Assembly (NCBI RefSeq): GCF_001552155.1
Contig: NZ_BCQQ01000014.1
Location: forward strand, 1-64,000
Reading direction: 5' to 3'
From: Actinomadura formosensis NBRC 14204
GTDB taxonomy: Bacteria > Actinomycetota > Actinomycetes > Streptosporangiales > Streptosporangiaceae
Length of the DNA: 64,000 bases
The notes beneath the pieces are model-generated. The model was not told the origin of the DNA and ran no database searches. It saw nothing but the letters and a program-made list of their open reading frames with translations. The translations under genes were made by a program, and so were the position numbers. Below, in pieces: positions 326 to 22,689 of this stretch (its first letter is position 1; each line of letters opens with the position of its first letter).

Positions 326-3300
326 CTACCCGTGCCGAGGCCCGTGCCCCGGTGGCGGGGTGAGCGTGGACGTGAAGTTCTCTCCGTCCACCAGCGGCTT
401 GTCGAGGTCTACTCCAGCAGCCGCCATCCGGTCGTATTCGGCGAGCACGAGATCCTTCGTGCGATACGTCCCATACTTGGTGATCTCGTTGTTCTTCAGT
501 CCGCCGGTCTCCGTCTGGAAGGTCTCCAGAATGTAATCGGCGTCCTCACGACTGATCCCGTAGAGGTGGAAGAAATAGGCGTCCAGCTCGGCGCGGATCT
601 GAGCCCGCCGCTCCTCATCCCACCGGAACGGTTCCCCAGAGTCCCCGAGGTCACGAGCGAGCGGAGACATGTCGTACGCGGTGTAGATGAGTTCAAGTAC
701 TCGCGACTTCAGGAATGTTGTGTGTGGGGCGAGGTCCTGTGGTGTGGGGACGGGAAGTTGCTTGAGAGTGATGCGAGTCAGATGGATTCCGCCGACCTTT
801 TGGCGTGCCACGTAATCATAGACGAAGGAGCATTGAGCAGCGATCAACGCTGCTGCCAGCGGAGCAGTCTGATAGGGCAGCATTAGGGGAAACGTGTAGC
901 TTACGGCTGATAGCGGCAAGAACGCTGGGATGGCGGTGCGTTCGTCAGTGCTGCGGCAGACGTCGCGGCAACCAACAAGCCACGGTCGATCCCAGTCGAG
1001 TTCCCCCAGGCGGCGCGCAACGCCGTCTACCTTGACCTCTTTCCCTTTTCGGGTGGTGAGTATCTGCCCTTCATATGCAATCCAGTAGCGCGGGTAAACT
1101 ACCGTAGATGGATCCTGCTTCTCATTGAGGGACGTGCGGCGATGGTCTTCATTGCCGATATCGTAATATGAATTGAATCGGTGGTCAAAGTGGTGGATCA
1201 TCTTTCCTTCATAGACGGGAAGCATTTTTCTTTCGCCGCGTGTGAATGCATTCCCGATGAGTTCCCATCCGTCGCCTTCAAGTTGCTCTTTGGTGTGGAA
1301 GAGGTCGGAATCGTCTGTCATGTTGAAGTGATTCTTGAATGCGACCTTCCAGTGATTGCCATTCTTGGCAGTCTCGTCCCATAGAACTGGGACTCGTCGG
1401 TAGATTGTGGCGGTTAGATCGGCATCGCGGCGGGAACGGAAGATTGGGAGCGTCCCAGTGTTGGGGTTGATGAGCGCGATCTCCTCGGGGCTGAGTGTGA
1501 AGACTCGATCCGGCTGATCGAGGACGCTCGAGTCCTGAAGAAAGAACGCGAACTGAGCTGCTGATTCCCGAAGGTCTCGACCGACGAAAGAAATCAAGCA
1601 GAACTTATAGCTGAAGTGCACTCCAACAAAGAGAGGCTTGCTGTTTTCGAAGTCGTACAGGGACGCAACCGCACCGCGCTGCGTGAAGGCGCTGAAGAGG
1701 TGCTGTGCTCCTGCACCTGTGGCGATAGCTGTCGGGATGATGCAGCCAAAACGCCCCTCGGGTGCCACGATGGATGCGAATCGCTCAGCAAAGAGTTGGT
1801 CCGTCTGGAGCGAGTTGACACCCTTGACGGTGAGACCTTTGGCGCACAGCGGGAAAGCTTCCGAGCCGCTAACGAAGAGGAATGTCGACTTCACCATGCG
1901 ACGTGCGGCGCGGAAATGCCTGCTTCCTCCAGGGTTCTCGCGTTCCCAGTCGGCGATTGCGGTCTTGCGTTGCGCGCCTGACAACTCGGCGATCCGAGGT
2001 TCGACAACGCTGAAGTACTTCTTCTCCTCGAAGTCGACCTTGTCCCACGGCGGGTTACCAAGCACACAGGAGAAGCCGCCCGCCCAGCCGGTGGCCGGGT
2101 CTACTTCCGCGCTACCGCCCTTGTCCGGGACGGTGAAGATCTCGGGGAACTCCAGGTGCCAATGGAAGAAGTGGTACCGCTCCTTCAGCCGCACGATCTC
2201 GTCGTGGACGTCCTGACCGGCGGCCGTCGCGTTCGGGTCCTGGAAGGCGCGGAAGACGTCGTGCGTGATCGGGGTCGGGGCGTCCTTGGTCTTGTGCCAC
2301 ATGAAGGCGGCGCACCAAGCGTCCGACATATGCACGGCATGGGTGTACTCGGCCGAGGACTTCCACTCCTCGTACGCGTCGGCCTGACGGTGGACGTCCC
2401 GGAGGGTGTTGGAAGGGGCAGCGGTGATGCGCCGCAGGCTCTCAGCGAAGGCGGTGTTGGCGACCTTCGTCTCCTCGAACAGGTCGAACAGGCCGCCTTG
2501 TCCCCCGCGCTCCTTATCGTTCTGCTTGGCGAGGAAGTTGGCGTAGGCAGCGTCGTCACCCTCGACCGGCTTGAACGCCTTCGTCGGAATGCCATCCTTC
2601 AGTAGGACCGGGGTTGCGCCGACGAGGCCGTTGCCGAGTTTGACGTGCGCGTCTAGGAACCCCAGGGGCTTGCCAGGCTCCAGGGCCTCCAGCCACAGCG
2701 ACACCTTGGCCAGTTCGACGGCCATCGGGTTGAGGTCAACCCCGTACACGCACCGCGCGATGACTTCGTGCAACGCGTGGCGTACCGCGTCCAACGTCGG
2801 TTCGGGGTTGTTCTCGCGGACGGCGGCGACGCGCTTGGCGATGCGGCGGGCCGAAGCGACCAGGAAGTGTCCGGAGCCGCAGGCCGGGTCGCAGACGGTC
2901 AGGGACAGCAGCTCGGAGACGATCGCCTCGGTGGGGTCGGGTTCGCCGGCTGCGGCGGCCTTTTCCTCGCCGCGCTTCTGGGCGTCGTCGATGACGGGGT
3001 TGAGCGTGGAGTCGAGCAGCGTCTCGATCAGGGAACTCGGCGTGTAGTACGAGCCGGTCTTCTTGCGGTCGTTGCCGAGCCGGTCGACCAGCTCGAACGT
3101 CCGCTCCACTGCGCTGTGCTTGGGGACGAGTTCGAGGAGCGACTCGTAGATGGAGCCGAGTTCCTCCGCGCCCATGTTGCGGTAGTCGACCGGGCGCCAG
3201 CGCCGCGTGTCGCCGTCGTGGATGCGGGACAGGTGGCGGACGGCCTCCAGCAGGTGCACGTTCGACAGGACGAGTCCGTGTAGCGGGGCGTCGGCGGGGG

Positions 3301-4432
3301 CGTCGTCGTAGAGGCCGCCGAGTCCGGGGATGCCGAGTTCGGGGCGCCCGTTCTCGTCCCCGAGGGCGTCCAGCACGATCTTGAGGGCCTGGTAGAGGTC
3401 GGTGTGCGCGGTGCCGCGCCGCCGCATCGCCTGCTGCCGGAGCCGCTCGGACGAGAAGTACTTCCGGTACCGCTCGCGGACCTCGTCCGGTGTGCCCTTC
3501 GGGTGGAGGACGTCGCGGTCCTCGGCGACGAACAGGAAGATCAGCCGGTAGGCGAGGCGGAGCAGCGCGCCGTGGAAGGCGTGCACGTCCAGGTCGCGGA
3601 GCAGTTCGGTGTTGGCGGGGTGCTTGAGGAAGCCCGTCCCGAGCGCGGTGATGGCCCTCTGGACGCCGTCGCGGTGGTGGTCGAGGGCGCGGGTGCCGGA
3701 GTCGATGGCGTCCGTCCGCCACTTCTCCAGCCAGCAGGCGGACGGGGCGGCGCCGTCGTCGACGGCGAAGCGGGAGGCGTGCAGGAGGCGGTACAGCAGC
3801 ACGAACTCGCTGAACAGCTCCCCGTCGAAGATCGCCTCAAGGTCGAATTCGACGTAGGCGGCGGTGGCGAGGGCGCTGGAGTCGCGCAGCAGCCTGAGCT
3901 GGCGTCCGTTGGTCAGCACGGCCCACAGGTGGGCTTCGGTGCGGTTCAGGCACTCCTGCATCAGCGACTGCGGCGGGATGGTGCCGGGGCCGCCGGGGCG
4001 AGTGTCGAGCCGGGCGTTCCAGGCGGCCAGGTGGATCGGGACGTGCGTCCACCGGTGGCTGATCGCGAACGTCTTGGTGCCGTCGTCGGCCTCGATGCCG
4101 GACGCGCCGAGGGCGGTGAGGCGGCCGAAGCTCAGCTCGGCGAACAGCGGCTCCAGCCACTGGCGGATCGCGAGGCCGGTGGGGTCGGCGGGGGTCTCCG
4201 CCTCCGGCGCGACGGGCAGCTTGCCGCGCAGCTCCTTCCACACCGCCTTGAGGTACTCCCAGTGGCGCTCGGCCTCGTCGCGGACGGAACGCGAGCCGAA
4301 GATGTCGTAGTCGGCGGGCTTGGAGCCCTGGACGTCCTTCCCCTCGGAAATCCTGACGAGCATGTCGGCGGGGAGGAGGCCGCCGATGGTGTGGACGGCG
4401 GAGAAGATCTGCGTGCGGGCGGTGGCGGACAT
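326..4432 (-). CDS. Eco57I-like class 1 N6-adenine DNA methyltransferase (DISARM DrmMI / type IIG-like), 1368 aa
   Basis: Large DNA adenine methylase. The SAM-binding motif I DPACGSGHFL is near residue 515 and the catalytic motif IV LGNPPWDKV near residue 793. The long N-terminal region (about 1-480) is helical and lacks an obvious nuclease motif, and the last 500 residues should carry target recognition. The frame stays open 403 codons further upstream, but the start is set at the ATG whose first base is the last base of the upstream helicase stop (TGATG), which implies translational coupling. The size and the SNF2 partner match DISARM-type methylases; a type IIG enzyme is the alternative, but no PD-(D/E)XK signature was seen. 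The 3' third (about 330-2000) is much richer in A+T than the 5' part, which suggests replacement of the recognition region. Confidence 0.9.
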   Translation of the reverse strand: MSATARTQIFSAVHTIGGLLPADMLVRISEGKDVQGSKPADYDIFGSRSVRDEAERHWEYLKAVWKELRGKLPVAPEAETPADPTGLAIRQWLEPLFAELSFGRLTALGASGIEADDGTKTFAISHRWTHVPIHLAAWNARLDTRPGGPGTIPPQSLMQECLNRTEAHLWAVLTNGRQLRLLRDSSALATAAYVEFDLEAIFDGELFSEFVLLYRLLHASRFAVDDGAAPSACWLEKWRTDAIDSGTRALDHHRDGVQRAITALGTGFLKHPANTELLRDLDVHAFHGALLRLAYRLIFLFVAEDRDVLHPKGTPDEVRERYRKYFSSERLRQQAMRRRGTAHTDLYQALKIVLDALGDENGRPELGIPGLGGLYDDAPADAPLHGLVLSNVHLLEAVRHLSRIHDGDTRRWRPVDYRNMGAEELGSIYESLLELVPKHSAVERTFELVDRLGNDRKKTGSYYTPSSLIETLLDSTLNPVIDDAQKRGEEKAAAAGEPDPTEAIVSELLSLTVCDPACGSGHFLVASARRIAKRVAAVRENNPEPTLDAVRHALHEVIARCVYGVDLNPMAVELAKVSLWLEALEPGKPLGFLDAHVKLGNGLVGATPVLLKDGIPTKAFKPVEGDDAAYANFLAKQNDKERGGQGGLFDLFEETKVANTAFAESLRRITAAPSNTLRDVHRQADAYEEWKSSAEYTHAVHMSDAWCAAFMWHKTKDAPTPITHDVFRAFQDPNATAAGQDVHDEIVRLKERYHFFHWHLEFPEIFTVPDKGGSAEVDPATGWAGGFSCVLGNPPWDKVDFEEKKYFSVVEPRIAELSGAQRKTAIADWERENPGGSRHFRAARRMVKSTFLFVSGSEAFPLCAKGLTVKGVNSLQTDQLFAERFASIVAPEGRFGCIIPTAIATGAGAQHLFSAFTQRGAVASLYDFENSKPLFVGVHFSYKFCLISFVGRDLRESAAQFAFFLQDSSVLDQPDRVFTLSPEEIALINPNTGTLPIFRSRRDADLTATIYRRVPVLWDETAKNGNHWKVAFKNHFNMTDDSDLFHTKEQLEGDGWELIGNAFTRGERKMLPVYEGKMIHHFDHRFNSYYDIGNEDHRRTSLNEKQDPSTVVYPRYWIAYEGQILTTRKGKEVKVDGVARRLGELDWDRPWLVGCRDVCRSTDERTAIPAFLPLSAVSYTFPLMLPYQTAPLAAALIAAQCSFVYDYVARQKVGGIHLTRITLKQLPVPTPQDLAPHTTFLKSRVLELIYTAYDMSPLARDLGDSGEPFRWDEERRAQIRAELDAYFFHLYGISREDADYILETFQTETGGLKNNEITKYGTYRTKDLVLAEYDRMAAAGVDLDKPLVDGENFTSTLTPPPGHGPRHG

Positions 4433-7332
4433 CAGGCGGCACCTCCGGAGACGACACCGGTCACGGGCAGGTACACGTAGGCGCCGAGGACGTCGGCGGG
4501 CTTCTGCGCCTTCACGTCCACGCCCCGGATGATCTCGCCGGCGGCGCTGCGGACGCGGCGGTGCGAGTCGCGGAGTTCGGCGGCGAGCCCGTCGCCGTAC
4601 TCGTTGAGATGCTCCGCGGCGTCGGGCAGGGCGTCCAGGAGCCGTTTCATCGTCCGCTCTCCGAAGGTGGGGTCGGTGTTCTCGTCGGCGGTGGCGTGCG
4701 GCAGGCGTGCGGCGTCCACGGCGGACAGCCACGTCGCGTCGGCCGGTGAGCCCTCGAAGGCGAGGAGCCGGGCGTCCTCGGCGACGAGCTGCCGCTCGCC
4801 CGCGCGGGACGGCAGCGTCAGGTGGAACCGGTAGCGGACGAGCAGCAGCGTCGTCCGGGTGGTGACCGCTCTCGTCCGGATGACGCCGCAGCGGCGGGCC
4901 GGGCGGGGGCCGTCGGTCTGGGAGTCGAGCGCGGCGTTGAGGAGGTGGCCGGCGAGCGCTCCGACGACCGGGTCCGTGCGGACGAGCGCCGCCTCGCCGC
5001 GCGACACCGCCGACACGGTCCGGAACGGGACCTGCTTGCCGTTCTCGATGATCCCGCCTCCGAGCATCGGCGCCAGCACGTCGCGGAGGCCGACGGGGCT
5101 CCCGCTCAGGTCGGCGCCGAAGTCGCCGGGGGCGTCGCCGCCCTCGTAGAGGACGCCGTCCAGAGCGGCGAGGGAATGGCGGACGAAGTCGCGGATCTCG
5201 CCGGCGTCGCCGAGCGCGTCCCGCGTGGCGTCGACCTCGCGTTTGACCTCCTCGGGACGGATGGTGTTCTGCGCGAACCGGGACCGGGACGCCTTCTCGC
5301 GCTCGACCGTGGAGTTCCACTCCTGTTCCAGCTCGGCGGCCTTCTCGTTGACGGTCTGGACGTCCTCGGCGCCGAACAGCGCCTCCTGCTCGCCGCGCTC
5401 GCGGCGCATCAGCAGCCACTCGACGATCGCGTCCGTCACACCCGACGACGCCTCGTCCGGGACGGAGACGGAGATGCCGAGGTCCTGGCGGATCTGCCGG
5501 TGCTTGCGGATCAGCACTTCCAGGACCTTGCCGTCGATGCCGTTGTCGCTGCCGTAGAGGGTGATGACCTTGACCTCGGCGCGCTTCTGGCCGTAGCGGT
5601 CGACGCGTCCCTCGCGCTGGTCGTGCCGGGCCGGGTTCCACGCGAGGTCGTAGTGGACGACGGCGTCGAAGTGGTGCTGGAGGTTGACGCCCTCCGACAG
5701 GCAGTCGGTCGCGACGAGGACACGGCGGGCGTCCGGGTCGTCGGCCGTCTCCTCGGCGAGCTCCTCGATGCGCTGGATGCGCTGCTGCGGGGACAGGGTG
5801 CCCGTCACGGCCTTGACGACCGTCTTGCGGCCGAGCTTTCCCCTGAGATGCTCGGCGACATAATCGGCGGTCGGGATGTAGCGGCAGAAGACGATCGGGT
5901 CGTAGCCGTCCTTGAGCAGCGCCTTCAGGTGCTTGATGAGGGCCTTCAGCTTCAGGTCCGCGGCCGGGCCCTCCAGGTCCGCGGCGCGGTCGGCGAGCGC
6001 GGCGAGCCTGGCCCCCGCGTCATCGGTCTCCGCGCCGGGCGCGACGTCCAGGCCCTCAAGGGCGTCGCCGTCGGCGGAGTCGCGGGTCAGCGGCGCGCCC
6101 AGCTCGTCGGCCTCCTCCGCGGTGGCGGCGGACGCGGCGGCCGACCGGGTCCGCAGCGTCTGCGCGGCGGCGCGCGGCGAGGACACCAGCGACCGCAGCA
6201 GCGCGATCGCCGACCACCAGGCGATCCGGGCCTCGCGCCGGCCCTGCTCCCCGGCGACGGTGACCCGCTCGCTCGCGTAGCCGATCGCGTCCTCCAGCAG
6301 CGACCGGTAGCCGGGCGACAGCTTGTAGGTCTCGTCCTTGAAGAACCGGTCGGCGGGGAACTCGGTCTCCTCGTCGAGGTACTTGCGGATGTCGGCGCGG
6401 CGCCGCTGGACGAAGTGCAGGGCGAGGCGGGCGCGGTCGGAGCCGCTGTTCATGTCCAGGTCGCCGAACTCGGGCTTCAACAGGGCCAGGAGGTTCCGGA
6501 ACGAGTTTTCCTTGCCGCTGTGCGGGGTCGCGGTCACCAGCAGCAGATGACGGTTCTCGTCCTTGGCGATGCGTTCGAGCAGCTCGTAGCGGCGCTGGCT
6601 CTGCTGGGAGGCCCGGTCGTCGGCGGCGACGCAGGTGTGGGCCTCGTCCACGATCACCAGGTCGGGGCAGCGGCGGACGAAGTCGTCGCGGTGCCGGTGC
6701 GACTTGATGAAGTCCGTGGAGACGATCACGTGGGGGTGCTTGTCGAACAGGGACTGGCCCATGTCCAGGTCCCGTTCGAGCCGGGTGACCGTGGAGGACA
6801 GGACGAGTTCGGCGTCGATGCCGAACTTGGCGCGCAGCTCGTCCTGCCACTGCTCGGCCAGCGCCGGCGAGCACAGCACCGCCAGGCCCTTCGCCTCGCC
6901 CTGCGCCAGCAGCTCGCTCGCGATCAGGCCGGCCTCGACGGTCTTGCCGATGCCGACGTCATCGGAGATCAGCATCCGGACGGTCTTCTGCCGCAGCGCC
7001 ATCATCAGCGGGACGAGCTGGTAGGCGCGCGGCTCCACCGCGATCCCGGCCAGCGACCGGAACGGGCCCGCGCCCGACCGGAACCCGATGCGCAGCGCGC
7101 TGCGCAGCAGGCCCGCGGCGCGCGAGTCGCCGAGATCCTGCGGCGACGGCGCCGCGAACTCCGCTCCCCGGACGTCCTCGAACGCCGGGAACACCGCGGC
7201 GATGTCGTCGTCGGCGCCGCCGAGCGGGCGCAGCACCAGCATGTCCGGGGCGCTCTCGGGCAGCACCACCCATTCGCGGTCGCGGACCGAGACCAGGGAA
7301 CCGGGGGTGTAGTCCGTTGTCGGCTGTGTCAT
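4432..7332 (-). CDS. SNF2-family helicase (RapA/DrmD-like), 966 aa
   Basis: ATP-dependent DNA translocase of the SNF2/RapA type. Residues 124-131 (DDVGIGKT) form the Walker A motif, DEAH is at 229-232, a TATPHSGK motif III follows, and the helicase C lobe carries LVATDCLSEGVNLQ and REGRVDRYGQ (motifs V and VI). The C-terminal third, after motif VI, is rich in charged residues and has no recognised domain. Its stop overlaps the start of the Eco57I-like methylase by one base, so the two are surely one operon. In DISARM the equivalent protein is DrmD, a SNF2 helicase paired with the adenine methylase. The family is clear; the DrmD label is by context. Confidence 0.88.
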   Translation of the reverse strand: MTQPTTDYTPGSLVSVRDREWVVLPESAPDMLVLRPLGGADDDIAAVFPAFEDVRGAEFAAPSPQDLGDSRAAGLLRSALRIGFRSGAGPFRSLAGIAVEPRAYQLVPLMMALRQKTVRMLISDDVGIGKTVEAGLIASELLAQGEAKGLAVLCSPALAEQWQDELRAKFGIDAELVLSSTVTRLERDLDMGQSLFDKHPHVIVSTDFIKSHRHRDDFVRRCPDLVIVDEAHTCVAADDRASQQSQRRYELLERIAKDENRHLLLVTATPHSGKENSFRNLLALLKPEFGDLDMNSGSDRARLALHFVQRRRADIRKYLDEETEFPADRFFKDETYKLSPGYRSLLEDAIGYASERVTVAGEQGRREARIAWWSAIALLRSLVSSPRAAAQTLRTRSAAASAATAEEADELGAPLTRDSADGDALEGLDVAPGAETDDAGARLAALADRAADLEGPAADLKLKALIKHLKALLKDGYDPIVFCRYIPTADYVAEHLRGKLGRKTVVKAVTGTLSPQQRIQRIEELAEETADDPDARRVLVATDCLSEGVNLQHHFDAVVHYDLAWNPARHDQREGRVDRYGQKRAEVKVITLYGSDNGIDGKVLEVLIRKHRQIRQDLGISVSVPDEASSGVTDAIVEWLLMRRERGEQEALFGAEDVQTVNEKAAELEQEWNSTVEREKASRSRFAQNTIRPEEVKREVDATRDALGDAGEIRDFVRHSLAALDGVLYEGGDAPGDFGADLSGSPVGLRDVLAPMLGGGIIENGKQVPFRTVSAVSRGEAALVRTDPVVGALAGHLLNAALDSQTDGPRPARRCGVIRTRAVTTRTTLLLVRYRFHLTLPSRAGERQLVAEDARLLAFEGSPADATWLSAVDAARLPHATADENTDPTFGERTMKRLLDALPDAAEHLNEYGDGLAAELRDSHRRVRSAAGEIIRGVDVKAQKPADVLGAYVYLPVTGVVSGGAA

Positions 7333-7398
7333 TGGTGGCAGAACCCTCGCGTCGTCGTGCTCGGTGGGTGTCGTAGGTGCATCAGGCGGCTGGGGGCA

Positions 7399-13725
<6,327 letters not shown>

Positions 13726-13810
13726 TTGTTGGCCACCACAGGCCTATTAACGCGCACACCGCGTTTTTGAACAGATCGCGGAGCCCCGGATGCCGACGAA
13801 GTCCCGGTCT

Positions 13811-15910
13811 TCATCGCCACTCGGCTTCATGGGGAAGCAGCGCACCGCTGTTGAGAGTGGTGGCGACAAGGTCCGCCGTCTCGTTTGCGCGGGCCGCGGC
13901 TTTCCGCGCGCTGGTGCGGAGTTCGTGGATCTTCCGGAACGCGTGACCGTAGGCGGTCTGCTCATCGAGCGGGAGCAGCGGGATACGCAGCCGGGACGGC
14001 ACGAGCTGATATGTGGAGGAGCCGGTCGTCGCCTGGCTGACGTTGTCGGGCGCGCTGACGAAACCGGCGAGGAACCAGGGATCCAGCCGTCCAGGGTCGG
14101 GGCGGAGCAGAAACATGCCGTTGCCGAGTAGGCATCCGGCGTCGTCCTCATCGGCCACGCGGGTCGCGACACCCTGCGGGCCGACGATCTGCGTGAGGAG
14201 GACGTCCCCCGTCTCGACGGTGACCGGGTCGGCCAGGTGCAGTTCGCCTGTGTCGCCGCCGGCGGGCGCCCCGCCGATCAGGTCACGTGCTCGAAGGACG
14301 GGACGGCCTGCCAGGTCGGCGGGCAGGGCATCGGCGGATGAGGCCCGGACGCCGCGATGGACGGCGAGCGCCCCGCCGCGGGCCAGGTCGGCGACGGTGG
14401 CGCTGCGCCAGGTGCGGTTGGTCTCACCGGCCGATGTCCACGGCCCGATCCTGCTCGCCTCGGCCAGGGCCGCCACATGCGCCCTGAGACGCCCGGCGAG
14501 TTCGGTGACGTGCCGGAGGGCCGCGTCAGGACTGATCACCGGCGCGGAGCGGACGTGCCGTGCCGGTGAGAGGTCGACGAGTTCGTCCAGGAGATCGATC
14601 GCGGGCACGGCCCGGGCGGTTCCCGGGATGTCGGCGAAATCGGCCGAGTCGCCGAACGCCTCCCAGGTGCCGCGGATCGTCTCCTGGAGCGCGCCCTGGT
14701 CCGCGGCCTTGCCCTGGTCGGGCGCCGGGTCCGCGGCGGTGGCGGACTGGTCGGCCATGTCCATCAGCAGGACCGGGTCCCGGCCGGGGCGGTCGGCTTC
14801 GGGACGCCGGAGTATCCACAGGTGAAGCCCGATGTGGTGAGGTACGGCCAGGCCCGCCGGAAGCGCGATGACCGCGCACAGCGCTCCCTGCCGGAGCAGC
14901 TCAGCTCGGATCCGGCGGCCGGACGGCCGTGACGCGGTGGCCGGCGGGAGCAGCAGGACGGCCTGCCCGCCGTCGCTCAGATGCGCCAGCGAGTGCTGCA
15001 CCCAGGCCAGTTCAGGCTCCGAACGCGGTGGCACGCCGTACGCCCAGCGCGTGTCGAACGCCAGCTCGTCGTGCCCCCACTCGCGGTCCCCGTAAGGCGG
15101 GTTGCACACCACGGCGTCCACCTGGAGGCCGGGGAAGGCGTCGTCGCGCAGGCTGTCTCCGGTCCGGACGTCCACGGACGCCTTGGGCGACTCTCCGGTG
15201 ACGCGCGTCCTGGCCTGGGCGGCGGTGACGGCGCGGTACTCCTGGCCGTGCACGCGTGCACCCGGCCCGAGCCTGGTCGCCACCGCGGCGAGGAGACGTC
15301 CGCCTCCGCATGCCGGGTCCAGAACGCTGCGGACCCGCCGGCCCCCCGCCGTCGCCAGCTCGGCGATCAGCTCGGCGATCGCCGGCGGCGTCGGGTGCGT
15401 CCCGCGGATGCCGATCGGTGCTTCGGAATGCTCGTCGAGGACGTCGAAGACGGCGAGGAACCCCTCCTGTCGCATCACGTTCGCCGCCGACCGCAGGAGC
15501 GCCGCCGGCACGTCGCCATGGCTCGGCTTCACCGGGTCGGAGGACGACGACACCGCGTCCGCGTGCAGCCCGATCAGCGCGTCGTCGTCGAGCGCCGTGA
15601 TTCTGCCTCGTTCGTTCTCGTCCAGCCCGGCTACGTGTGCAGTGAACAGCGCTACGGCTTCGACGTCGCGCTGCGTGCGTCCGCGCAGGTGGGTTCTCAG
15701 GTCGTCTCTGGCCGAACGTGCGGGGAGGCGGCCGCGCGCGTTCAGCCACGCTTCGACCTGCCGCCGGTCGTAGCTGGGGCTGGCTTCCGTACCCCCGCTG
15801 GGCTGCGGAAAGTCGGGGTGACGCCGGCGCCAGTTGCTCACGGTGGCCCGCGTCACGCCGGCGAGCCGGGAGATCTCGGCGGCGGTCAGCTGCTCGCTCT
15901 GCGATGCCAT
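13811..15910 (-). CDS. HTH - N6-adenine methylase - HsdS-like recognition domain fusion, 699 aa
   Basis: A self-contained modification enzyme. Residues 6-60 form a helix-turn-helix (LTAAEISRLAGVTRATVSNW), the centre is an HsdM-type methylase with DPACGGGR near 198 and the catalytic CNPPYGD near 271, and the C-terminal 230 residues look like half of a type I specificity subunit: two-strand TRD, then a helical tail rich in Ala/Arg. No nuclease or translocase module is visible, so cleavage would have to come from neighbours. The start is placed at the ATG preceded by AAGGAAG five bases away, 31 codons inside the longest frame. It is the first gene of the minus-strand group and divergent from the exonuclease. 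The HTH may let it bind its own promoter. Confidence 0.87.
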   Translation of the reverse strand: MASQSEQLTAAEISRLAGVTRATVSNWRRRHPDFPQPSGGTEASPSYDRRQVEAWLNARGRLPARSARDDLRTHLRGRTQRDVEAVALFTAHVAGLDENERGRITALDDDALIGLHADAVSSSSDPVKPSHGDVPAALLRSAANVMRQEGFLAVFDVLDEHSEAPIGIRGTHPTPPAIAELIAELATAGGRRVRSVLDPACGGGRLLAAVATRLGPGARVHGQEYRAVTAAQARTRVTGESPKASVDVRTGDSLRDDAFPGLQVDAVVCNPPYGDREWGHDELAFDTRWAYGVPPRSEPELAWVQHSLAHLSDGGQAVLLLPPATASRPSGRRIRAELLRQGALCAVIALPAGLAVPHHIGLHLWILRRPEADRPGRDPVLLMDMADQSATAADPAPDQGKAADQGALQETIRGTWEAFGDSADFADIPGTARAVPAIDLLDELVDLSPARHVRSAPVISPDAALRHVTELAGRLRAHVAALAEASRIGPWTSAGETNRTWRSATVADLARGGALAVHRGVRASSADALPADLAGRPVLRARDLIGGAPAGGDTGELHLADPVTVETGDVLLTQIVGPQGVATRVADEDDAGCLLGNGMFLLRPDPGRLDPWFLAGFVSAPDNVSQATTGSSTYQLVPSRLRIPLLPLDEQTAYGHAFRKIHELRTSARKAAARANETADLVATTLNSGALLPHEAEWR

Positions 15911-15943
15911 CGGTACTTCCTTATCAGCTTTCGGGAGCATCGC

Positions 15944-16016
15944 CACTGTACACCATCCAATTGAGTGAAGCCATTTGACAGTGCTTTCACAGCATGCTCT
16001 CATGGTCGTGCTTTCA
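15944..16016. promoter_or_regulatory. Divergent promoter region with dyad and direct repeats
   Basis: The 130 bp between the methylase and exonuclease starts contain an inverted repeat (CACTGT at 15944-15949, ACAGTG at 15978-15983), a direct repeat GTGCTTTCA at 15981-15989 and 16008-16016, and a palindrome AGCATGCT at 15991-15998. TTGACA at 15975-15980 with TCTCAT 17 bases on is a plausible promoter reading toward the exonuclease. TACAGT on the other strand could be a -10 for the methylase. The dyads overlap these boxes and would suit binding by the HTH-bearing methylase, which is an inference. Confidence 0.5.
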
Positions 16017-16040
16017 ACGGCTCGGCGCTAGGAGCGACGG

Positions 16041-16973
16041 ATGACGAGTTGGGTGGCGATCGACTTCGAGACGGCGAACGCCCTGCGGGGAAGCCCGTGC
16101 TCGGTGGGACTGGCCAAGGTGAAGGAAGGACGGATCGTCGAGGAGTGGTCATCGCTCATCAAGCCCCCGGACGGACACGACCACTTCGACGCCTACAACG
16201 TCGGCATCCACGGCATCACGGCGGACCGCGTCAGGGACGCCCCCGGCTGGCCGGAGACGCTGGAGCGCATCGTCCAGTTCACCGGCGACACCCCCTTCGT
16301 GGCGCACAACGCGGCCTTCGACATCGGAGTTCTCGCCGACGCGTGCCGGGCGAGCGGCCTGCCCGTTCCGGACCTCCGGTTCGCCTGCACGCTCGTGGTC
16401 GCAAGACGGGCCTGGACCGGCCTGCTCGCGTACAAGCTCCCGGTGCTCGCCGACGCCCTGGGCATCGAACTGCCGCGCCACCACGACGCCGGTGACGACG
16501 CGCGGGCGGCGGCCCAGGTGATGCTCGCCGCGCTGAAACGGCAGGGAACGGCCGCCCTGGACGACCTCCTCGCCGTCCACGGGATCCGGATGGGCTCCTA
16601 CCGCGGCGGTGCCCGCCAGGGGTGCAAGTACTGGGGAGCCACCCGCCGCGAGCCGTCTCCGGACGCCGATCCCGACGCCGACCCGGACAACCCGTTCTAC
16701 GGGCTCACCATCTGCTTCACCGGATCACTGCCCGACATGACGAAGGCGGTGGCCGCCAAACGGATCGCGGCCCTCGGAGCCTGGACGTCCGACAACGTCA
16801 CCAGGTCCGTCGACCTGCTGGTGGTCGGCGGCATCAAACCCCACCAGCTCGCACCCAGGGCGACGAAGACCGGGAAGCTCGCCAAGGCGGAACGCCTCCG
16901 CGACTCCGGTCACGACATCACGGTCATCGACGACGAAGAGTTCTACGAGCTCCTCGCGGTGGCCGAGAACTGA
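16041..16973 (+). CDS. DnaQ-like DEDDh 3'-5' exonuclease with C-terminal BRCT domain, 310 aa
   Basis: Exonuclease domain in residues 1-175: ExoI motif AIDFET (Asp8, Glu10), ExoII HNAAFDIG (Asp94), ExoIII with His148 and Asp152, the full DEDDh set. After a linker rich in Asp/Pro (about 200-216) comes a BRCT domain (about 219-305) with the typical start ...YGLTICFTGSL and a VTRSVDLLVVG core. The arrangement is that of actinobacterial pol III epsilon-like proteins used in repair. AGGAGCGACGG directly precedes the ATG. It diverges from the methylase group and may be an accessory nuclease of the island or an ordinary repair gene; the sequence cannot separate the two. Confidence 0.9.
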   Translation: MTSWVAIDFETANALRGSPCSVGLAKVKEGRIVEEWSSLIKPPDGHDHFDAYNVGIHGITADRVRDAPGWPETLERIVQFTGDTPFVAHNAAFDIGVLADACRASGLPVPDLRFACTLVVARRAWTGLLAYKLPVLADALGIELPRHHDAGDDARAAAQVMLAALKRQGTAALDDLLAVHGIRMGSYRGGARQGCKYWGATRREPSPDADPDADPDNPFYGLTICFTGSLPDMTKAVAAKRIAALGAWTSDNVTRSVDLLVVGGIKPHQLAPRATKTGKLAKAERLRDSGHDITVIDDEEFYELLAVAEN

Positions 16974-17132: not shown

Positions 17133-17609
17133 ATGCGCAAGATCATCATCGGCCTCTGCGCCGTCGCCGTCCTCACCGCCGGCTGCAACATCGAGCAGGA
17201 CCCGGTCGCCGTCCAGTCGTCCGACCCCGGCAAGCCCGCGGGCAAGAGCGGCGGCGCGGCCAAGGGCAAGACCTTCCCGATCAAGCTCACCGCCAAGCGG
17301 GCGCACGCCAGCAAGAGCGTCCTGAGCGACGGCGACGCCCTGTCCTGCGTCAAGGTCACCGTCACCAACCAGACCAAGAAGCAGCTCGAGGTCAACCCCC
17401 TCTACTTCTCGATCACCGACACCAAGAACACCAAGCACGACAGCAGCACCGCCCTCGGCGAGTACGAGGGGCAGATCGACACCACGCAGCTCGCCCCGGG
17501 CGAGAAGGCCACCGGCCTCGTGTGCGCGAAGGGCGACTTCCGGCCCAAGGTCGTCTCGATGACCAACCCCCTGTTCGACGAGGCGGCCCGCGCCCAGGTC
17601 GCCCCCTGA
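17133..17609 (+). CDS. Small secreted lipoprotein, DUF4352-like, 158 aa
   Basis: N-terminal lipoprotein signal: basic MRK, hydrophobic stretch, lipobox LTAGC with Cys19. A Gly/Lys/Ser linker leads to a single all-beta domain of about 110 residues with an internal pair of cysteines (SCVKVTVTNQT; LVCAKGDF), the usual layout of DUF4352/MPT63-like immunoglobulin folds on actinomycete surfaces. AGGAG seven bases upstream supports this ATG. It follows the exonuclease in the same direction, but a hairpin separates them. Ligand or role unknown. Confidence 0.8.
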   Translation: MRKIIIGLCAVAVLTAGCNIEQDPVAVQSSDPGKPAGKSGGAAKGKTFPIKLTAKRAHASKSVLSDGDALSCVKVTVTNQTKKQLEVNPLYFSITDTKNTKHDSSTALGEYEGQIDTTQLAPGEKATGLVCAKGDFRPKVVSMTNPLFDEAARAQVAP

Positions 17610-19152: not shown

Positions 19153-19244
19153 TGGCGGAGGATCGGGGATTTGAACCCCGGATGGGCGTGAACCCAAACC
19201 GCATTAGCAGTGCGGCGCCATAGACCGGACTAGGCGAATCCTCC
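19153..19244 (-). tRNA. tRNA-Ser(GCT)
   Basis: Acceptor stem GGAGGAT/ATCCTCC, discriminator G and an encoded CCA (19153-19155). The anticodon stem CCGCA/TGCGG holds loop CTGCTAA with anticodon GCT at 19206-19208. The long variable arm gives 92 nt, the class II form expected of serine tRNAs. The T arm GGGGTTCAAATCCCC is intact. It sits between transposase fossils and housekeeping genes, a common type of island boundary. Confidence 0.95.
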
Positions 19245-22552: not shown

Positions 22553-22625
22553 GCAGCCGTAGCTCAACGGATAGAGCATCTGACTACGGATCAGAAGGTT
22601 GGGGGTTCGAATCCCTCCGGCTGCG
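22553..22625 (+). tRNA. tRNA-Arg(ACG)
   Basis: 73 nt with acceptor GCAGCCG/CGGCTGC. The anticodon stem TCTGA/TCAGA encloses CTACGGA with anticodon ACG (22586-22588), and the T arm has GGTTCGAATCC. The 3' CCA is not encoded, unlike the tRNA-Ser in this window. The ACG anticodon would be read as inosine-CG and decode CGN. Confidence 0.95.
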
Positions 22626-22689
22626 CATCTCTGGCTGTGGCGCTCCTTGATCTTCAAGGGGCGCCATGATCGTTTTGGGGCGACGTGGG

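What the first reader, a model, noticed from the sequence alone, without database searches (positions are those of the whole stretch)
326..16973. Candidate undescribed defence island: kinase-helicase-nuclease fusion with two methylases and a SNF2 helicase
Four long genes on one strand plus a divergent exonuclease combine modification (two adenine methylases of different families), DNA translocation (SNF2 and DUF1998-type helicases), nuclease (Vsr/DUF559-like, DEDDh) and a Ser/Thr kinase. DISARM is known to join an adenine methylase, DrmD (SNF2), DrmA (helicase) and DrmB (DUF1998); BREX type 2/Pgl adds a kinase. The present set overlaps both but matches neither: I see no DrmC phospholipase D, no PglZ and no BrxL. 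The defence role is an inference from parts and context.
Basis: partly seen in the sequence, partly recalled or inferred. Interest (0 to 1): 0.9.

Follow-up and report, generated by a model that had tools for sequence, protein, structure and literature searches.

The report
Kinase-fused ARMADA type I defence locus
This actinomycete locus is a phage-defence operon of the recently described ARMADA type I kind whose central DNA helicase-nuclease carries an intact protein-kinase domain that the published description does not mention; the fusion is widespread in actinomycetes, so infection control by phosphorylation may be a general, untested part of this defence family.

Summary
The genes are real, but the locus is not an undescribed five-gene system. 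Three genes (window 326-13725, minus strand) form a published system, ARMADA type I: a YprA helicase with C-terminal nuclease, a BrxHII/RapA-like helicase, and a PglX-like methylase, in exactly the published order (PMC12458937). New here is a PknB-type Ser/Thr kinase fused in frame to the helicase N-terminus. The open text of the ARMADA paper never mentions a kinase. The fusion is widespread: 97 distinct actinomycete loci keep the catalytic Lys/Asp/Asp and APE residues in 97/97. The helicase tree shows one gain inside kinase-less ARMADA I, with at least one later loss. In the same bacterial family, 12 of 21 ARMADA type II loci have a separate kinase gene directly after ArmD, from a different kinase clade, so kinases were recruited independently to both types. 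The methylase is 92-96% identical to close relatives over residues 1-650 but mostly 53-74% over 751-1250, with a matching GC dip: specificity swapping. The upstream HTH-methylase (13811-16003) is accessory; with the DEDDh exonuclease (16041-16973) it forms a resident block near tRNA-Ser whose cargo varies. Verdict: new variant of a known kind.

The parts
7399..13725 (-). Kinase-YprA-nuclease fusion protein (ArmC equivalent of ARMADA I), 2108 aa
   Evidence: in the tree inside ARMADA I, kinase-fused clade SH-aLRT 100
12793..13662 (-). PknB-type Ser/Thr kinase domain, aa 22-311, catalytically complete
   Evidence: Pfam Pkinase 2e-41; PknB structures ~1e-57; K62, E88, D166, D184, APE invariant in 97/97 loci
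7771..12681 (-). YprA-type helicase part, aa 349-1985, with RecA1/RecA2 and MZB/DUF1998; begins at the MDVF that starts kinase-less homologues
7402..7788 (-). C-terminal Vsr/MTES_1575/DUF559-like PD-(D/E)xK nuclease domain, aa 1980-2108
   Evidence: (DUF559 above gathering cut-off; MTES_1575 5e-5; Vsr 0.13), model pLDDT 82, weak Foldseek matches to PD-(D/E)xK nucleases, invariant D/H motif
4432..7332 (-). BrxHII/RapA-like SNF2 helicase (ArmA equivalent), 966 aa
   Evidence: PADLOC model PDLC02853, labelled DpdE, 1625 bits full length
326..4432 (-). PglX/DrmMI-like adenine methylase (ArmB equivalent), 1368 aa; start overlaps the SNF2 stop
   Evidence: SAM motif DPACGSGHF at 515 and NPPW at 793
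683..2182 (-). Variable, low-GC target-recognition region of the methylase (aa 751-1250)
   Evidence: identity drops from 92-96% to mostly 53-74% and recovers to 82-88%; GC 0.54-0.60 against 0.66-0.72 in the 5' part
13811..16003 (-). HTH + N6 adenine methylase, accessory; family recurrently next to Ser/Thr kinases
16041..16973 (+). DEDDh exonuclease-BRCT protein; resident neighbour, not part of the system
   Evidence: 4 of about 97 kinase-fused loci; same gene beside other cargo
17133..17609 (+). Lipoprotein (DUF4352) of the resident lipoprotein-exonuclease-HTH-methylase block
19153..19244 (-). tRNA-Ser(gct), likely anchor of the variable region

Best explanation
The locus is a kinase-fused ARMADA type I anti-phage operon. 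The PglX-like methylase marks host DNA at a site set by its exchangeable recognition region. The YprA helicase-nuclease and the RapA-like translocase engage DNA lacking that mark (or replicating phage DNA), translocate on it and cut it with the C-terminal PD-(D/E)xK domain. The PknB-type kinase fused to the YprA N-terminus is an in-cis switch: it senses infection or complex assembly and phosphorylates the YprA protein and its partners to license or restrain translocation and cleavage. Shown here: gene content and order, domain make-up, single origin of the fusion, intact kinase catalytic residues, specificity-region swapping. Inferred from ARMADA II experiments: defence, non-abortive action, need for helicase and methylase motifs. 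Inferred without direct evidence: what the kinase senses and phosphorylates, and the cleavage step. The HTH-methylase is an accessory, probably tied to the kinase. The exonuclease is a bystander.
For: Order and architecture match published ARMADA I (30, 51). In the tree the window protein lies inside kinase-less ARMADA I, apart from E. coli ArmC and DruE. Kinase: 97/97 intact, 65% mean identity against 28% for the linker; the fused kinases form one clade. Independent kinase gene directly after ArmD in 12/21 ARMADA II loci, 4 of them followed by an HTH-methylase. Recognition-region swapping with GC dip. Four co-directional genes, the SNF2 and methylase reading frames overlapping. Nuclease fold.
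Against: No function was tested for any ARMADA I or any kinase-bearing ARMADA. One clear kinase loss (L186, Streptomyces sp. AC1-42W) with the other genes still present suggests the kinase is dispensable in some hosts. The BrxA-like insert could not be confirmed. Nuclease assignment by fold is weak (best E about 0.01). In ARMADA II the SAM motif of ArmB is only partly required, so methylation marking may not be the whole logic.
Confidence: 0.62

Rival explanations
1. The kinase is an abortive-infection effector (as proposed for Stk2, from my own knowledge): the helicase part senses phage DNA and the kinase then phosphorylates host proteins to stop growth.
For: Complete PknB-like kinase; PADLOC PD-T4-6 and mad6 kinase models match it.
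Against: ARMADA II acts without killing. The fused kinases form their own clade, and the nuclease residues are also conserved, so a DNA-cutting effector is already present.
Confidence: 0.2
2. The four or five genes form one undescribed system, with two methylases and an exonuclease as obligate parts.
For: Same five-gene layout in four related genomes (window, L033, L034, L078).
Against: Exonuclease in 4 and HTH-methylase in about 27 of about 97 kinase-fused loci. The pair heads a type I restriction operon in the same chromosomal position elsewhere. A pair not next to ARMADA (L249) is closer to the window's (86-87%) than the ARMADA-linked pair of L033 (74-79%).
Confidence: 0.07
3. The HTH-methylase and the kinase are one portable control module (methylation or expression state read by the kinase) that plugs into different defence operons, and the fusion hard-wires it to ARMADA I. 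This is compatible with the best explanation.
For: HTH-methylase next to kinases in ARMADA I, ARMADA II (L282, L284-L286), kinase-bearing type I restriction operons (L250-L254, L256) and stand-alone pairs (L257, L261-L263); 12 of 30 best homologues in the genus have a kinase within 1.5 kb.
Against: No background rate was computed. Defence genes cluster anyway. About 70 of 97 kinase-fused loci show no recognised HTH-methylase nearby. The kinases belong to separate clades.
Confidence: 0.3
4. A divergent DISARM class 1 system.
For: DrmD and DrmMI profile hits (292 and 220 bits).
Against: Helicase and OB-DUF1998 are one protein, no DrmB or DrmC, a fused nuclease, gene order YprA first, and the helicase part matches DruE rather than DrmA profiles.
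Confidence: 0.03

Closest known systems
ARMADA type I (Bell et al. 2025, PMC12458937)
   Same: YprA helicase with C-terminal Vsr-type nuclease, then BrxHII/RapA-like helicase, then PglX-like methylase; common in Actinomycetota
   Different: N-terminal Ser/Thr kinase fused to the YprA protein; HTH-methylase upstream; no kinase is mentioned in the open text
ARMADA type II (E. coli; plasmid example L211)
   Same: Three homologous components
   Different: Other gene order, ArmD UvrD helicase as fourth gene; in actinomycetes the kinase is a separate gene after ArmD
DISARM class 1
   Same: DrmD- and DrmMI-like helicase and methylase
   Different: No DrmB, no DrmC; helicase, DUF1998 and nuclease in one chain
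Druantia DruE
   Same: Helicase part matches DruE profiles (355 bits)
   Different: No DruH; different partner genes; outside in the tree
BREX type 2/Pgl (PglW kinase, PglX methylase)
   Same: A kinase together with a PglX-like methylase
   Different: No PglZ or PglY; the kinase is on the helicase; PglW profile match marginal (55 bits against cut-off 990)
MADS
   Same: N6 methylase plus kinase combination; mad2 and mad6 profiles match
   Different: No other MADS genes; NCBIfam scores far below cut-offs

Membership tests
[quoted passage not shown]
   window and all intact, fully visible actinomycete relatives; same order in D. radiodurans, Nocardioides, Acidithiobacillus, Mesorhizobium, Paraburkholderia
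ARMADA type I | YprA protein groups with ARMADA I and apart from ARMADA II and Druantia | tested here: met
   SH-aLRT 100 split; the paper's own type I representative was not at hand, and the few references are long branches
ARMADA type I | C-terminal active Vsr-type nuclease | tested here: met
   DUF559 above cut-off, MTES_1575 and weak Vsr match, invariant catalytic-type residues, fold consistent; nuclease activity itself not tested
ARMADA type I | BrxA-like helical insert after RecA1 | tested here: inconclusive
   model pLDDT 62, no significant Foldseek or Pfam match
ARMADA type I | No ArmD (GajB-like UvrD) as fixed partner | tested here: met
   none within the visible window flanks; an ArmD-like gene occurs sporadically at other type I loci
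ARMADA (any) | Anti-phage activity | not testable with these tools
   shown only for E. coli type II (PMC12458937)
DISARM | Separate DrmA and DrmB (DUF1998), with DrmC PLD | tested here: not met
   helicase and MZB/DUF1998 in one protein; no PLD gene in the locus
BREX type 2 / Pgl | PglZ phosphatase and PglW kinase | tested here: not met
   PglW profile 55 bits against cut-off 990; no PglZ among the five proteins
Druantia | DruH or other Dru partners with DruE | tested here: not met
   helicase part only; partners are ArmA- and ArmB-like

The most novel reading that the evidence does not exclude
Ser/Thr phosphorylation is a general control layer of actinomycete ARMADA: PknB-like kinases were captured independently by type I (fusion) and type II (adjacent gene), and together with an HTH-methylase form a portable switch also used by type I restriction operons, so these DNA-cutting systems are armed by phosphorylation rather than by methylation status alone.
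Probability: 0.35. Interest if true: 0.75.

Novelty: new variant of a known kind. Interest (0 to 1): 0.56.

Why it matters
ARMADA was described in 2025 from helicase phylogeny, with activity tested only for E. coli type II systems. How these helicase-nucleases avoid host DNA and switch on is open. A kinase fused to the central helicase in about 100 known loci across Streptomyces, Micromonospora, Nocardia, Amycolatopsis, Nonomuraea and Actinomadura, and a second kinase lineage beside ARMADA II, makes the activation question directly testable by one point mutation, in bacteria important for antibiotic production. It would also place a second kinase-plus-methylase logic next to Pgl/BREX.

Tried and rejected
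Undescribed-system reading: rejected after the ARMADA paper was found. DISARM and BREX: failed defining features. Exonuclease as a component: rejected by co-occurrence and by its presence beside other cargo. Idea that the fused kinase derives from the HTH-methylase-linked or ARMADA II kinases: not supported, separate clades. Fold test for the BrxA-like insert: inconclusive. PADLOC's DpdE label for the SNF2 protein: considered a model label, since nothing else of Dpd is present. An early guess that the HTH-methylase family is followed by one big helicase and a kinase was wrong: the gene blocks are type I restriction operons and, separately, ARMADA II operons. IMG/VR scan: 8 distant or partial relatives only, followed no further.

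Full report
What is there. Five proteins were read and scanned. On the minus strand, in transcription order: an HTH + N6 methylase (13811-16003); a 2108-aa protein with Ser/Thr kinase, DEAD helicase, MZB/DUF1998 and a C-terminal nuclease (7399-13725); a RapA/SNF2-like helicase (4432-7332); and an Eco57I/PglX-like methylase. The methylase's true start is at 4432, overlapping the SNF2 stop. A DEDDh-BRCT exonuclease is divergent (16041-16973). The contig starts at window base 1. Bases 2-265 hold the end of a convergent HATPase gene, so the operon's last gene is complete. Named close relatives (Actinomadura sp. 6K520, A. pelletieri) place the host in or near Actinomadura.

What it is. The core three genes match ARMADA type I of Bell et al. 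[quoted passage not shown] The order is kept in all intact, fully visible actinomycete relatives examined and in plasmid copies from Deinococcus radiodurans, Nocardioides, Acidithiobacillus, Mesorhizobium and Paraburkholderia. A tree of 83 YprA proteins puts the window inside this group, with E. coli and Streptomyces ARMADA II (SNF2, methylase, YprA, UvrD) and Druantia outside it. The nuclease domain meets the DUF559 cut-off, resembles MTES_1575 and weakly Vsr, and its model (pLDDT 82) best matches PD-(D/E)xK-type nucleases, though at E about 0.01. The BrxA-like insert could not be tested well.

What is new: the kinase. Kinase-less homologues begin with MDVFxVHxxLIxDY; in the window this is residue 349, preceded by a variable linker and a complete PknB-like kinase. 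In 343 genomes of the host's family, open frames split cleanly into about 2070-2370 aa (kinase-fused, about 30 genomes, helicase 64-100% identical) and about 1700-1810 aa (kinase-less, about 40 genomes, 53-60%). Named hits span Streptomyces, Micromonospora, Nonomuraea, Amycolatopsis, Nocardia, Lentzea, Kitasatospora and others; one hit labelled Melainabacteria sits on a 9.9-kb contig and is probably misbinned. Across 97 distinct fused loci the catalytic K62, E88, D166, D184 and APE residues are present in 97/97 and N171 in 96/97; kinase pairs average 65% identity, the linker 28%, RecA1 81%. The fused clade has SH-aLRT 100 and is nested in kinase-less ARMADA I: one gain. One clear later loss is L186; L172 and L182 are cut by contig ends. 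The fused kinases form one clade in a kinase tree. The word kinase does not occur in the open text of the ARMADA paper, and no paper found links the two. Its supplements were not readable.

A second, independent kinase. Of 21 ARMADA II-like loci with visible 3' ends in the same family, 12 carry a ~300-aa kinase gene directly after the ArmD-like UvrD gene, and in 4 of them (L282, L284, L285, L286) an HTH-methylase follows. These kinases form their own clade. A Streptomyces cellulosae plasmid has a third, deeply different kinase gene just upstream of ArmA. The window's own genome holds such an ARMADA II-like set on another contig (YprA 2169 aa, UvrD, kinase; L247). Recurrent, independent pairing of kinases with ARMADA is the strongest argument that phosphorylation matters for the system; it is genomic evidence, not proof.

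The outer two genes. Homologues of the HTH-methylase lie within about 2 kb upstream of the kinase-YprA gene in about 27 of 97 fused loci, in either orientation, and directly next to none of the 20 kinase-less actinomycete loci. The exonuclease accompanies four loci only. In the genus, a lipoprotein-exonuclease-HTH-methylase block lies on one side of a tRNA-Ser(gct) locus and is followed by ARMADA I in the window and A. pelletieri, by a type I restriction operon ending in a kinase gene in G047, and by unrelated genes in G014. The pair in L249, which is not next to ARMADA, is closer to the window's pair (86-87%) than the ARMADA-linked pair of L033 (74-79%). So these genes are residents or accessories, not the system. 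The HTH-methylase is nonetheless repeatedly found with kinases: 12 of 30 best homologues have one within 1.5 kb, and six more have one as the last gene of the adjacent restriction operon. A background rate was not computed.

Specificity. Between the window and its two closest relatives that share a near-identical methylase N-terminus (L033, L034), the methylase is 90-98% identical up to about residue 750, mostly 53-74% over 751-1250, and 82-88% at the C-terminus; a third (L078) diverges more and falls to 26-53% in that stretch. GC falls to 0.54-0.60 in the same stretch. The SAM motif (515) and NPPW (793) are intact. This is the signature of recognition-region exchange and argues that site-specific methylation sets self and non-self.

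Mechanism. Shown by sequence: parts, order, conservation, swapping. From published ARMADA II work: all four genes and the helicase and NPPW motifs are needed, and defence is direct and non-abortive. Inferred: the methylase marks host DNA; the two translocases act on unmarked or replicating phage DNA; the C-terminal nuclease cuts; the fused kinase switches the complex by phosphorylation. The kinase step is the least certain.

Limits. No activity was measured. Trees used short searches, and the reference sequences are few and on long branches. Counts are of genomes, not independent events. Gene calls in relatives were made by a simple frame-GC caller and similarity searches, so absent genes may be missed.

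Noticed in passing
L247 (G000:C48), 5649-15222: The same genome carries an ARMADA II-like set: 2169-aa YprA, GajB-like UvrD helicase and a separate Ser/Thr kinase; no ArmA/ArmB within the 3.8 kb visible upstream (contig end).
   Followed up: yes
L047 (G000:C152), near 13766-14731: Remnant of a kinase-less ARMADA I in the same genome: start of YprA joined to the end of the methylase by an internal deletion. Similar internal deletions occur in L046 and L105.
   Followed up: partly
L108-L111, L039, L042, L261, L262 and others: A GajB-like UvrD helicase related to ArmD (33% to E. coli ArmD) lies next to or a few kb from many type I loci in actinomycetes, although ArmD is described as a type II feature.
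   Followed up: partly
L250-L254, L256: A type I restriction operon (HsdM, HsdS, HsdR) headed by the HTH-methylase and ending in a Ser/Thr kinase gene.
   Followed up: partly
L039, L046, L261, L262, L263: In five genomes of the same genus an HTH-methylase, a kinase (with TPR repeats in L261) and a convergent ArmD-like UvrD gene lie upstream of kinase-less ARMADA I.
   Followed up: partly
window 4432-7332: PADLOC's DpdE model PDLC02853 matches this ARMADA SNF2 protein over its full length (1625 bits), so automatic annotation may call such proteins DpdE although no other Dpd gene is present.
   Followed up: no
window 19153-19244 and 22553-22626: tRNA-Ser(gct) and tRNA-Arg(acg) flank a conserved lipoprotein gene; genus members carry different cargo next to this tRNA-Ser, so it looks like an insertion hot spot. 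No integrase was recognised.
   Followed up: partly
L186 (Streptomyces sp. AC1-42W): Secondary loss of the kinase in a copy whose other genes are still present, in a genome that also holds a kinase-fused copy (L169).
   Followed up: partly
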